In this document: positions 13,742-61,480 of the stretch, in pieces
Layout of the letters: each line of letters begins with the position of its first letter
Position numbering within the stretch: the first letter of the stretch is position 1
Assembly (NCBI RefSeq): GCF_009834875.1
Contig: NZ_WVHT01000002.1
Span: forward strand, 434,001-498,000
Length of the DNA stretch: 64,000 nt
From: Hufsiella arboris
GTDB taxonomy: Bacteria; Bacteroidota; Bacteroidia; Sphingobacteriales; Sphingobacteriaceae
Direction: 5' to 3'
Translations under genes and position numbers: made by a program
The notes under the pieces: generated by a model
Told to the model about the DNA's origin: nothing
Seen by the model: the letters and a program-made list of their open reading frames with translations, nothing else
Databases searched by the model: none

Positions 13742-14003
13742 TTTTGAAGCGCAATGTCCATCCTGCAATTAAAGTATATTCCGGCTTTCCGCTAATACTA
13801 CACAGGCATTAGCCACTTGGGCCGGTATCCGCTTCAATCCGGGCTAAAATGCAAGGGCTGTTCCATAATTTTTGGCAGTTGCCGGGCAAGCTGAACATAG
13901 CAGAACTGTCCTGCCATCAATAAACCCAATGGTAGCGGCAGCTTTTGCGTCGTTCAGCAGTTGCGATCATTTTTGCATAACCAGCAAAACTACAGCGGAC
14001 AGT
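13742..14003 (+). repeat. Dispersed intergenic repeat, copy A
   Basis: Begins TTTTTGAAGCGCAATG and ends near CTACAGCGGACAG. It has a central imperfect hairpin built around GCTAAT...ATTAGC, then GGCCGGTATCCGCTTCAATC and GGGCTAAAATGCAAGG. Further on it shares AAGCTGAACATAG and CATCAATAAACCCAATGG with the copies at 14148 and 36431. It has no coding potential that I can support. Confidence 0.8.
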
Positions 14004-14147: not shown

Positions 14148-14416
14148 ATTGAAGCGCAATGTTAGTTCAAGATTTAAAGTTTGTTCCCGCTATCCGCTTT
14201 TACTCCTAACCCCGCTACACAAATCTTCCCTTCGTTCGGAGTAACCGCTGCTATCGGGGCTAAAGGGCAAGGACTAATCCTTGGTTTTCGGTTGCGCCCG
14301 GCAATCTGAACATAGAAGAATTGTATTAACATCAATAAACTCATTGGAAGCGGCAGCTTTTGTATCGTTCAGCAATTCCGCTCATTTGCGTAATCAAGCA
14401 AAACTACAGCGGACAG
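14148..14416 (+). repeat. Dispersed intergenic repeat, copy B
   Basis: Diverged direct copy of the element at 13742, in the same orientation about 400 bp downstream. It shares TTGAAGCGCAATGTTAG, CATCAATAAACTCATTGGAAG, GGCAGCTTTTG and CTACAGCGGACAG. Its central part carries the alternative form TTCCCGCTATCCGCTTTTAC with a GCTATCGGGGCTAAAGGGC tail. Confidence 0.8.
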
Positions 14417-19904: not shown

Positions 19905-20379
19905 TTAGAAGGGAACAAGAGGAAATATCATTAGAGTCTGAAATTTAGGTTTTGAAAAGCAATGGCAGTTTATCGCGATTTTTCTGATAGTAAAAGCGAG
20001 AACAAAAAAATGAAGTTTAGTTGAATAATTATTGATGGAAAAGCAATGATAGTTTTTCATATGGACGGTTGTTCCCGTGCTCCGCTCATACTGCACAGGC
20101 ATTAGCCACATTGGCCGGTATCCGCTTTGCCCGGGTTTAAAATGTAAGGATTGTATACAAAAGGAATCGCGACATAACGTAAATAGCTTAGTTATCCCGC
20201 CGATTTTAAACCTGATTGAAATGGAAAGCCCGCAAACGAGGTACGAGTGCGGACTTGTAATGGAAAGCAGGGTCGAATTAACCGATGAAAGCTAAACCTT
20301 GCTTTTCTAAAAATTATTCTCTTAAAATCTGTTTCTTGCCCGGTATTCGTGTTCTCAACAATAATACTATACTTGGTCT
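19905..20379. other. Gene-free region containing repeat copy D
   Basis: About 475 bases between the convergent transporter and glutaryl-CoA dehydrogenase genes. It contains one dispersed repeat (20036-20150) preceded by a partial echo (TTTTGAAAAGCAATGGCAG near 19950). Short frames here read through the repeat and have no family features. No clear intrinsic terminator was seen. Confidence 0.55.
20036..20150 (+). repeat. Dispersed intergenic repeat, copy D (short)
   Basis: Begins GGAAAAGCAATGATAGTTTT and continues TTGTTCCCGTGCTCCGCTC, ACTGCACAGGCATTAGCCAC and TTGGCCGGTATCCGCTTTGC, ending GGGTTTAAAATGTAAGG. It matches the first half of the copies at 13742 and 36431 and lacks their second half. 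Confidence 0.75.
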
Positions 20380-36430: not shown

Positions 36431-36630
36431 TTTTGAAGCGCAGCAGCAGTTCGACGGCTAAAGTTTGTTCCGGCTTTCCGCTAATACTGCACAGGCCTTA
36501 GCCACGTGGCCGGTATCCGCTTCAATCCGGGCTAAAATGCAAAGGCTGTCCTCCGATTTTGGGTAGTTTACGGTCAAGCTGAACATAGAGAACTGCACTG
36601 ACATCAATAAACCCAATGGCGGCGGCAGCT
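36431..36630 (+). repeat. Dispersed intergenic repeat, copy C
   Basis: Begins TTTTGAAGCGCAGCAGCAG and has TTCCGGCTTTCCGCTAATAC, GCACAGGCCTTAGCCAC, GGCCGGTATCCGCTTCAATC and GGGCTAAAATGCAAAGG. It ends with AAGCTGAACATAGAG and CATCAATAAACCCAATGG, the same second half as copies A and B. It is closest to copy A. Confidence 0.8.
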
Positions 36631-59659: not shown

Positions 59660-59701
59660 TGTGGATAAAACTGTGGATAACTGTTAAGAACATGTTTATA
59701 A
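59660..59701. promoter_or_regulatory. Cluster of DnaA-box-like sequences
   Basis: TGTGGATAA occurs perfectly at 59660-59668 and 59672-59680, the reverse complement of the consensus TTATCCACA. TGTTAAGAA at 59682 and TGTTTATAA at 59693 are degenerate matches in the same direction. The four are spaced 12, 10 and 11 bp apart and are followed by AT-rich DNA. It could be a DnaA-regulated site or part of an origin. Confidence 0.55.
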
Positions 59702-59718: not shown

Positions 59719-59746
59719 TTGACAATTTTTTTTAAAGCCCTATCTT
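59719..59746 (+). promoter_or_regulatory. Candidate strong promoter TTGACA-16-TATCTT
   Basis: TTGACA at 59719-59724 and TATCTT at 59741-59746 with a 16-nt spacer containing a T8 run. This is close to a strong vegetative promoter and differs from the usual Bacteroidota TTTG/TAnnTTTG form. Transcription would begin near 59753. Confidence 0.55.
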
Positions 59747-59752
59747 AGTGTT

Positions 59753-60098
59753 ATTCAAGAACGAAGTTCATTGACAGCCTGAGAGAAAGACCAAAAGAGA
59801 CTACAAGTCGCAAGACTTACCAGTTTCGGAACTTTTAAAACCCGGAAAGAGTTGAAGATTTTATCGGAAGCTGTAAGATGGGATCACATAAAGACAGGCA
59901 TTATCCGATTAAGCACAGATTCTATGGAAAAAAGGCTTTTTGAGGATGAAGATTACGGGTTACCCTGTTTGAGAGAACGGACACTACGAATCAGTTGAAA
60001 AACTTCATGTTTTTGTTTAACTTTTAAAGAGTTACGATTTTTTAAAAGTTGAAACGGGGATCTGAATCGAAAGAGGAAGATTCCCGTTTTGTTTTTTA
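59753..60098 (+). ncRNA. Candidate structured non-coding RNA or long leader upstream of phoH
   Basis: About 345 nt from the promoter to an intrinsic terminator, with no ORF. Several pairings are visible. AAGTC/GACTT forms a small hairpin near 59805. ATCGGA (59863) pairs with TCCGAT (59904), with GCTGT/ACAGGC inside. AACTTTTAAA occurs twice, at 59830-59839 and 60019-60028, and either copy can pair perfectly with TTTAAAAGTT at 60041-60050 just before the terminator stem. The two pairings exclude each other, as in an attenuator. No RNase P, tmRNA, SRP or 6S signature was found. It could be a stand-alone RNA or the leader of phoH. Confidence 0.55.
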
Positions 60099-60099
60099 T
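60052..60099 (+). terminator. Intrinsic terminator before phoH
   Basis: AAACGGGGATCT (60052-60063) pairs with AGATTCCCGTTT (60078-60089) and is followed by TGTTTTTTAT. It ends the candidate RNA and lies about 35 nt before the phoH start, so phoH would need read-through or its own promoter. Confidence 0.85.
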
Positions 60100-60133
60100 A
60101 AAATTTTAGGGCCGAAATCTTTAATTTTATATC

Positions 60134-61480
60134 ATGCGAAACCAATCTGCCCCCGATGCCCGTAAAATCTTCGTGCTCGATACCTCCGTTATTTTATATG
60201 ACCATAATGCCGTACGAAATTTCCAGGAACATGATGTGGTTATACCGATACAAGTTCTGGAAGAACTCGATAACTTTAAAAAAGGAAACGAAACCCGCAA
60301 CTTTGAAGCCCGTAGTTTTATACGTCTTATCGAAGATATCTCTCAAAATAATGTATTAAATAACTGGATCCCCTTAAACGGCCGCTCGCATGGTAATTTT
60401 AAAGTGGTGATGGACTTTAAGGTTTCCAACCAGGACGCAGAAGAAATTTTTGGCGACGCCAAATTCGACCACCGCATACTGAATGCCGCATTGCACATGC
60501 AGCACGAAAATCCTGACAAAAAAGTTGTGCTTGTTTCTAAAGATATTGTCCTTCGGCTAAAAGCAAAAGCATTGAATTTATATGCTGAGGATTACGAAAC
60601 AGGCAAAATTAAAGACGTTGAAAAACTTTACACTGGAAAGACGACACTGGAGGGTGTTTCTGATAAAACGGTTAATCAGCTGATCAAAGCCGGCGTGATC
60701 CCGATAAAGGAACTGAAACAAGACCCACCGAAACGGAACAACCATTTCTTTATTTTGCAGAACAAAAAAAAGACTGTTTGTGCTTTTCATCGCTCAGGTA
60801 GTGAAACTGTTGAATATGTACCTGAAATTGATGTATACGGAATCGATCCCCGTAACGATGAGCAAGCCTGTGCTATTCACGCGTTAATGAATCCGGATAT
60901 TAAACTGGTAACGATACAAGGCAACGCCGGTACCGGAAAAACGCTGCTGGCGCTTGCAAGCGCCCTCGAACAAAGAAAATCGTTCCGGCAGATTTACGTT
61001 ACGCGGCCGATTATTCCGTTAAGTAATAAAGATATCGGTTTCCTGCCGGGTGATGTAAAGTCGAAAATTGATCCGTACATGGCGCCGATCTGGGATAACC
61101 TTCGGTTTATCAAAGAGCAATTCTCAGAAGATGTAAAAGCACAGGCAAAGATCGATGAATTGGTAACCAGCGAAAAGATTGCCATTTCACCGCTGGCATT
61201 TATTCGCGGCAGAACACTGACAAAAATTTTCTTCATTATTGATGAGGCGCAAAATCTCACGCCACATGAGGTTAAAACGATCATTTCAAGGGCCGGCGAG
61301 AATACTAAAATTGTGTTTACTGGCGATATTTACCAAATTGACACGCCATATCTCGATGCCGAAAGTAACGGATTATCTTACTTAATCGATAAGGCTAAAG
61401 ATCATCCGCTTTACGCGCACATCACCCTGCAAAAGGGTGAACGGAGTGAACTTGCAAATCTGGCAACCGAATTGCTGTAA
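60134..61480 (+). CDS. PhoH-family protein with N-terminal PIN domain (PhoH2 type)
   Basis: 448 residues joining a PIN nuclease domain (FVLDTSVILYDHNAVRNF near 13-30, with conserved aspartates) to a PhoH P-loop ATPase. Walker A is GNAGTGKTLLALA near 263, Walker B FFIIDEAQNLTPHE near 367, and the remaining PhoH motif IVFTGDIYQIDTPYLD is near 395. Mycobacterial PhoH2 of this layout is an RNA helicase and RNase; here it may act on RNA in the cytoplasm. The ATG at 60134 is 35 nt after a terminator that ends a structured RNA. It is followed at 12 bp by a sigma-54 response regulator. Confidence 0.93.
   Translation: MRNQSAPDARKIFVLDTSVILYDHNAVRNFQEHDVVIPIQVLEELDNFKKGNETRNFEARSFIRLIEDISQNNVLNNWIPLNGRSHGNFKVVMDFKVSNQDAEEIFGDAKFDHRILNAALHMQHENPDKKVVLVSKDIVLRLKAKALNLYAEDYETGKIKDVEKLYTGKTTLEGVSDKTVNQLIKAGVIPIKELKQDPPKRNNHFFILQNKKKTVCAFHRSGSETVEYVPEIDVYGIDPRNDEQACAIHALMNPDIKLVTIQGNAGTGKTLLALASALEQRKSFRQIYVTRPIIPLSNKDIGFLPGDVKSKIDPYMAPIWDNLRFIKEQFSEDVKAQAKIDELVTSEKIAISPLAFIRGRTLTKIFFIIDEAQNLTPHEVKTIISRAGENTKIVFTGDIYQIDTPYLDAESNGLSYLIDKAKDHPLYAHITLQKGERSELANLATELL

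What the first reader, a model, noticed from the sequence alone, without database searches (positions are those of the whole stretch)
59753..60133. Long structured RNA or attenuator leader ahead of phoH
A 345-nt transcript with a strong promoter, several predicted stems and an intrinsic terminator ends about 35 nt before a PIN-PhoH gene. AACTTTTAAA is present twice and either copy can pair with TTTAAAAGTT next to the terminator, so the fold could switch between states. I found no known RNA family signature. It may be an undescribed leader controlling phoH or a stand-alone small RNA.
Basis: partly seen in the sequence, partly recalled or inferred. Interest (0 to 1): 0.8.

Follow-up and report, generated by a model that had tools for sequence, protein, structure and literature searches.

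The report
New RNA family partnered with PhoH2
Upstream of a bacterial RNA-unwinding and RNA-cutting gene lies an apparently uncatalogued, intricately folded RNA that comes and goes together with that gene in related genomes and whose promoter carries sites that look like those of the DNA-replication initiator DnaA.

Summary
Window 59751-60097 encodes a stand-alone RNA of about 347 nt with a conserved promoter, a covarying 17-helix fold and its own terminator; no Rfam family matches it. Of 151 genomes of the window's family 61 carry the RNA, and they are exactly the 61 with a full PIN-PhoH (PhoH2-type) protein. On a marker tree of 79 of these genomes the joint label changes 13 times, at least 10 on supported branches. 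In 9 of 61 RNA and gene lie on different contigs or over 20 kb apart, in 8 they are divergent, and phoH2 has its own promoter-like -7 element, so it is not an attenuator. Upstream of the promoter, 47 of 52 copies have two or more same-strand 9-mers resembling DnaA boxes (strict form 111 forward, 2 reverse, 2.2 expected). Homologues of about 280-610 nt with similar 9-mers occur elsewhere in the class. Most likely the RNA acts in trans with PhoH2 under DnaA-type control; contact, expression and function are inferred. The AACTTTTAAA 'switch' is local to this copy.

The parts
59660..59701 (+). Array of DnaA-box-like 9-mers: TGTGGATAA 59660, TGTGGATAA 59672, TGTTAAGAA 59682 (loose match), TGTTTATAA 59693
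   Evidence: Within 180 to 30 nt before 52 copies TGTKNATAA occurs 111 times forward, 2 reverse, 2.2 expected; a same-strand pair spaced 0-5 nt occurs once in the 4.8 Mb own genome, here. Binding by DnaA is inferred.
59719..59748 (+). Promoter of the RNA: TTGACA ... TATCTTAG (Bacteroidota-type -7 TAnnTTwG, type recalled)
   Evidence: 41 of 52 copies have TAnnTTWG in the 60 nt upstream plus first 20 nt (5.8 expected by letter shuffles), nearly all 8-10 nt before the first aligned base.
59751..60097 (+). Structured RNA, about 347 nt (working name PhoH2-associated RNA); ends predicted, not mapped
   Evidence: Model R2 match 59751-60095, 225 bits, the window copy being one of the model's 19 sequences; 79 pairs in 17 helices, 90.0% of cells paired against 82.7% shuffled, 0 of 500.
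59763..59782 (+). Conserved 5' block (family form ACGAAGTACTTTGACAGCCTGA); TTTGAC joins a long-range helix
   Evidence: Alignment; column pair 25-260 is C-G in 14 and U-A in 5 of 19 copies.
60019..60050 (+).
   Evidence: Helices 14 and 15: 93.8 and 94.7% of cells paired, 9 of 11 pairs with changes on both sides.
60051..60097 (+). Intrinsic terminator of the RNA
   Evidence: Helix 16: 12 pairs, 99.6% of cells paired, 5 pairs with changes on both sides.
60122..60129 (+). Promoter-like -7 element (TAATTTTA) of the phoH2 gene
   Evidence: TAnnTTTR within 45 nt of the start in 38 of 60 orthologue upstream regions, 6.6 expected; 32 of the 38 at -12 to -15. No -33 element was tested.
60134..61480 (+). 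PIN-PhoH (PhoH2-type) protein, 448 aa: PIN_4 residues 13-155, PhoH 237-435
   Evidence: Pfam PF13638 3.5e-34 and PF02562 1.2e-48.

Best explanation
An undescribed, free-standing structured RNA of Bacteroidota that works in trans with the PIN-PhoH (PhoH2-type) helicase-ribonuclease. SHOWN by sequence: a conserved RNA with its own promoter and terminator, a covarying multi-branched fold, DnaA-box-like sites just upstream of the promoter, one to three loci per genome, and the same presence and absence as PhoH2 in 151 genomes, also where the two are unlinked. INFERRED: that it is transcribed and stable; that it is the PhoH2 ring's dedicated RNA ligand (scaffold, inhibitor or guide) rather than its messenger leader; and that DnaA (or a protein of the same specificity) sets its synthesis, tying PhoH2-dependent RNA turnover to the replication state of the cell. 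The mode I favour is that the structured RNA occupies and restrains or positions PhoH2, the part proposed for the small protein PhoAT in mycobacteria.
For: The same 61 of 151 genomes hold both; none of the other 90 gave either. Marker tree of 79 genomes: 13 changes of the joint label, at least 10 on supported branches; since both lists are identical I gave one label for both traits, so 10 of 10 independent pairs agree (p 0.002). Nearest RNA unlinked in 9, 2-20 kb away in 2, divergent in 8, upstream on the same strand within 2 kb in 42 of 61. Covariation: 46 pairs with two-sided changes against 24.3 shuffled, 0 of 500. 9-mers: 111 forward, 2 reverse, 2.2 expected near 52 copies; 51 of 52 copies have a loose match between -100 and -45, 44 a strict one; 12 forward, 0 reverse, 0.35 expected before 11 class homologues. 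Similar 9-mers lie beside dnaB in three genera. Longest ORF varies from 12 to 70 aa in 52 copies, no shared frame seen.
Against: No contact or expression is shown. In at least the 50 of 61 genomes with the pair within 2 kb one deletion could remove both, which inflates concordance. Four of the 9 'unlinked' cases rest on different contigs of draft assemblies, and in one (G025) the contig ends about 400 nt upstream of phoH2. PhoH2's reported preferred motif AC[A/U][A/U][G/C] (PMC7390352, passages) is not enriched: 124 seen, 140 expected in 52 copies. In the class, G301 (95% complete) has the RNA's 5' motif and G186 (69% complete) an RNA match without a PhoH2 hit, and most of the 134 PhoH2 genomes there gave no RNA hit, perhaps from divergence. 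A looser 9-mer pair occurs 43 times in 38 of 151 family genomes (17 times in 16 for the reversed control); by position only 4 of the 43 sit at RNA promoters.
Confidence: 0.6

Rival explanations
1. Independent regulatory RNA (for example a global regulator). PhoH2 is only its processing or decay enzyme, or the two share a module without direct functional contact.
For: Concordance alone does not show which way the dependence runs; no enrichment of the PhoH2 motif; no RF00013 6S match in 21 genomes, so a vacancy for another global RNA is conceivable.
Against: A mere substrate would not be expected to vanish whenever its nuclease does (reasoning).
Confidence: 0.25
2. Cis-acting leader or attenuator of phoH2 that switches between folds.
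For: Upstream and co-directional within 2 kb in 42 of 61 genomes; alternative pairing possible in the window.
Against: 9 of 61 unlinked, 2 at 2-20 kb, 8 divergent; phoH2's own -7 element; the proposed switch is not conserved. Other competing pairings were not searched for.
Confidence: 0.05
3. RNA antitoxin to a PhoH2 toxin, a type III-like toxin-antitoxin unit (a special case of the best explanation, so the odds overlap).
For: Order promoter, RNA, terminator, nuclease gene; tandem copies in 10 of 61 genomes (my re-reading, split hits of one long copy taken as one); PhoH2 is called a toxin-antitoxin in mycobacteria (PMC7390352, passages).
Against: One large fold, not short repeats; PhoH2 can be unlinked; PhoH2 in 134 of 198 class genomes looks more like a core gene; no toxicity data.
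Confidence: 0.15
4. The 9-mer array is bound by another regulator, not DnaA; the RNA then has no special tie to replication (independent of the other rivals).
For: No such 9-mer in the 3.5 kb fetched around own dnaA; in the own genome same-strand pairs occur only at this promoter; across the family the looser pair is not far above a reversed control (43 against 17).
Against: TGTGGATAA is the textbook DnaA box (recalled); clusters of 3-5 such 9-mers lie beside dnaB in three genera.
Confidence: 0.35

Closest known systems
Mycobacterial PhoH2 with PhoAT (PMC7390352, passages seen)
   Same: PIN-domain RNase fused to PhoH-domain RNA helicase, with a small conserved partner encoded just upstream
   Different: Here the upstream partner is a non-coding RNA with its own promoter and terminator, at times unlinked or divergent, not a co-transcribed small protein
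Type III toxin-antitoxin (ToxIN), recalled
   Same: RNA gene with terminator directly ahead of a nuclease gene
   Different: One large multi-branched RNA instead of short pseudoknot repeats; nuclease family differs; not always linked
Large ornate bacterial RNAs OLE, GOLLD, ROOL (search listing and abstract starts)
   Same: Hundreds of nt, ornate folds; OLE has protein partners and unknown biochemical function
   Different: No Rfam match here; other phylum than OLE; tied to PhoH2
6S RNA
   Same: Stand-alone RNA gene
   Different: Multi-branched, not one long hairpin with a bubble (6S shape recalled); no RF00013 or RF01685 match at gathering score in the window

Membership tests
Any Rfam 15 family | Score at or above the family's gathering threshold | tested here: not met
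   None over the RNA in the window; 20 loci with relatives gave only two tRNAs, both in L006
6S RNA (RF00013) | Model match | tested here: not met
   0 of 21 genomes incl. own; control rings in 5 of 14. RF01685 was tested only through, not genome-wide
phoH leader / attenuator | Lies in cis, co-transcribed ahead of phoH | tested here: not met
   9 of 61 unlinked, 8 divergent, 2 at 2-20 kb; own phoH2 -7 element
Switching leader | Conserved mutually exclusive pairings | tested here: not met
PhoH2 protein | PIN domain plus PhoH domain in one chain | tested here: met
   PF13638 and PF02562
PhoH2 protein | NCBIfam equivalog NF053827 cut-off 680 bits | tested here: not met
   261.4 bits, model positions 2-423 of 427; so 'PhoH2-type', not the curated equivalog
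Type III toxin-antitoxin | Short tandem RNA repeats next to a ToxN/AbiQ/CptN-like nuclease (recalled) | tested here: not met
   Single long fold; partner is PIN-PhoH. Toxicity not testable here
DnaA-controlled promoter | Several DnaA-box-like sites in register with the promoter | tested here: met
   47 of 52 copies have two or more loose matches between -100 and -45, 23 of 52 two or more strict ones; resemblance only
DnaA-controlled promoter | DnaA binding and effect on transcription | not testable with these tools
   Needs footprint or ChIP and a reporter assay

The most novel reading that the evidence does not exclude
A new class of ribonucleoprotein: a DnaA-controlled, multi-branched RNA that is the dedicated partner of the PhoH2 helicase-RNase across Bacteroidia, coupling RNA turnover to chromosome replication.
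Probability: 0.4. Interest if true: 0.93.

Novelty: categorically new. Interest (0 to 1): 0.82.

Why it matters
PhoH2 proteins are highly conserved yet poorly characterised (abstract of PMC7390352). A dedicated RNA partner that comes and goes with the protein would make their role directly testable and, as far as my searches show, would be the first RNA assigned to PhoH2; a replication-initiator array on its promoter would link RNA turnover to the cell cycle. My searches found no such RNA in print (open-licence library only, listings seen).

Tried and rejected
Leader/attenuator: rejected. 6S RNA: no RF00013 in 21 genomes. Coding RNA: no shared ORF. PhoH2 motif enrichment: none. Mobile element: no blastn match of the window RNA in plasmids, nor of one relative in phages. 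DnaA boxes next to own dnaA: none. Window as replication origin: no skew flip at the RNA. Class-wide hits L111 (a lone terminator) and L112 (inside a coding sequence, by eye an exonuclease) were judged false and dropped. A boxA-like reading of GTACTTTGACA is recalled only and untested; the motif did not show in the class-wide 5' ends I read.

Rows dropped: one search kept 52 distinct copies (45 loci) with both a 5' motif and a terminator; terminators without a 5' match (L015, L023 twice, L051, L065) were left out. Alignment A2 for the covariation count used 19 of the 52 (compact, alignable ones). The tree used 79 of 151 genomes, picked by hand from those whose second PhoH gene was listed (41 with the pair, 38 without; a few listed ones were not taken). 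Array pairs outside the RNA: 20 loci of 19 RNA-lacking genomes were fetched, 13 translated.

Full report
1. The observation. The fold is more stable than shuffles (z -4.0, 0 of 100). Rfam gives nothing credible over the region.

2. Relatives. A DNA search of 60 genomes (own included) gave matches in 8, at the 5' end or the terminator end. I then took the upstream regions of 60 PIN-PhoH orthologues found in 151 genomes of the family, added three loci, and collected 52 distinct copies. They share a 5' block (typically ATCAAGnACGAAGTACTTTGACAGCCTGA), hairpins with C(UACG)G and GNRA-type loops, and a terminator AAACGG..AATCGnAAGAG..CCGTTT. The aligned stretches run from 269 to 619 nt. Several genomes hold tandem copies and some hold copies away from phoH.

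3. Structure. On 19 of the 52 copies the RNAalifold structure with ribosum scoring has 79 pairs in 17 helices, among them long-range helices that close the molecule. 90.0% of cells pair against 82.7% when shuffled and 33-49% when the partner strand is slid; 46 pairs change on both sides against 24.3; 0 of 500 shuffles reach any of the five measures. The shuffles do not remove relatedness, and the structure was derived from these same sequences, so I lean most on single strong pairs: column 25 with 260 is C-G in 14 and U-A in 5 of 19.

4. Not a leader. A full-length covariance model found the RNA in 61 of 151 genomes at E up to 0.01 (stricter filters). These are the same 61 that carry a full PIN-PhoH orthologue (set equality of the lists typed; in G012 the gene is split over two contigs). 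Of the 61, the nearest RNA is upstream on the same strand within 2 kb in 42, upstream on the opposite strand in 8, 2-20 kb away in 2, more than 20 kb away in 5 and on another contig in 4. The last four rest on draft assemblies; in three of them the 1-1.5 kb upstream of phoH2 was in hand and showed no copy, in G025 the contig ends after about 400 nt. One search's merging rule gave 46 genomes with one locus, 13 with two and 2 with three; reading again and taking the split hits of one 610-nt copy in G084 and G128 as one gives 48, 11 and 2, with tandem copies in 10 genomes. The own genome has a second copy on another contig. The phoH2 gene has its own promoter-like -7 element (38 of 60 upstream regions, 6.6 expected), 32 of the 38 at -12 to -15. 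The AACTTTTAAA alternative pairing is confined to the window and, weakly, one same-genus copy.

5. Concerted presence. On a tree of the other PhoH gene for 79 genomes the joint label changes 13 times, at least 10 times on well-supported branches. Because RNA and PhoH2 have identical lists I passed the same label as both traits; 10 of 10 independent pairs then agree by that identity (sign test p 0.002). For example G161 has both and its close sister G126 neither. Caveat: where the two are adjacent one event can remove both. The unlinked genomes argue for a functional tie, but they are 9.

6. Promoter array. Upstream of the -35, 9-mers TGTKNATAA recur on the same strand, typically about 58, 69 and 91 nt before the first aligned base, roughly whole helical turns apart: 111 forward, 2 reverse, 2.2 expected between -180 and -30 of 52 copies. 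Between -100 and -45, 44 of 52 copies have a strict and 51 of 52 a loose match, 47 of 52 two or more loose ones; L047 has none. In the 4.8 Mb own genome a same-strand pair spaced 0-5 nt occurs once, here, and a pair spaced up to 30 nt only here (two overlapping hits). The 9-mer fits the DnaA box (recalled consensus TTATNCACA, reverse TGTGNATAA). A looser pair occurs 43 times in 38 of 151 family genomes, with and without the RNA, against 17 hits in 16 genomes for the reversed control; by position 4 of the 43 are at RNA promoters. Of 20 such loci fetched from genomes lacking the RNA none matched the 3' model at a meaningful E-value (best 0.89); of 13 that I translated, three, from three genera (G135, G096, G007), lie beside dnaB in clusters of 3-5 such 9-mers, as expected of DnaA boxes near an origin, while others lie at unrelated genes or inside coding frames. 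None lie in the 3.5 kb around own dnaA. DnaA control is therefore plausible but unproven.

7. Wider class. The full model hits 18 of 198 class genomes at E up to 0.01, 13 of them outside the family, mostly weak; I fetched 12 of these 13 and judged 2 false. Many of the homologues start ATCAAGTGAGAGATAAAAGG or close to it; a pattern for this found 10 of 198 genomes against 2 of 198 for the reversed control. From this block a terminator was recognised within 800 nt in 7 of 11 loci, ending at about 280 to 607 nt. Upstream they carry the same 9-mers (12 forward, 0 reverse, 0.35 expected in 11 loci; loose matches 1 to 4 per locus), which supports homology independently of the RNA. In G283, G341, G251, G048, G216 and G313 the RNA lies next to and divergent from phoH2. 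PhoH2 is found in 134 of 198 class genomes at E up to 1e-40; 9 of the 10 pattern genomes have it, the exception being G301. The 3' model hits 23 of 198, 18 outside the family; 7 of these 18 are weak (E 0.002-0.009), three of them in genomes without a PhoH2 hit (G281, G282, G340), which I take for chance. So at class level the association is compatible but weak, and most PhoH2 genomes show no RNA with my models.

8. Names. A pattern scan of named genomes gave 76 stretches: 67 labelled Mucilaginibacter, two Daejeonella, one Flavihumibacter soli and six MAGs labelled only Bacteroidetes or Sphingobacteriales. The pattern fits only part of the family.

9. Mechanism. Shown: RNA gene, covarying structure, promoter and terminator, array, concordance. 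Inferred: transcription; that the RNA is a PhoH2 ligand; that it restrains or positions the enzyme as PhoAT is proposed to do in mycobacteria (PMC7390352, passages); that DnaA sets its level. The reported PhoH2 motif is not enriched (124 against 140 expected).

10. Novelty. No Rfam match other than two tRNAs in 20 loci with relatives. Text searches found no RNA tied to PhoH2 (listings seen); the term phoH does not occur in the main text of the 2010 survey of 104 RNAs nor of the F. psychrophilum transcriptome paper, of both of which I saw passages. Subscription journals and supplements were not searched.

Noticed in passing
window 13774-13849(-), 14179-14265(-), 20204-20278(+), 36463-36537(-): Four Flavo-1 RNAs (RF01705) above gathering score in one 64 kb window.
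   Followed up: no
G000:C53:160591-160913(-), locus L120: Second copy of the RNA in the window's own genome, on another contig than phoH2, 85 bits.
   Followed up: partly
L210, L217, L224: Clusters of DnaA-box-like 9-mers in intergenic regions beside dnaB (other neighbour a SpoU methylase or ubiE) in three genera: candidate replication origins.
   Followed up: partly
L029, L032, L033, L048: Copies of about 610-620 nt with the same ends but a much larger middle.
   Followed up: no
L129 (G301): RNA 5' motif with the 9-mers but no PIN-PhoH hit in a genome given as 95% complete: possible exception to the partnership.
   Followed up: no
window 59763-59777: GAAGTTCATTGACAG resembles boxA-type antitermination sites of rRNA leaders (recalled); not seen in the class-wide 5' ends I read.
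   Followed up: no
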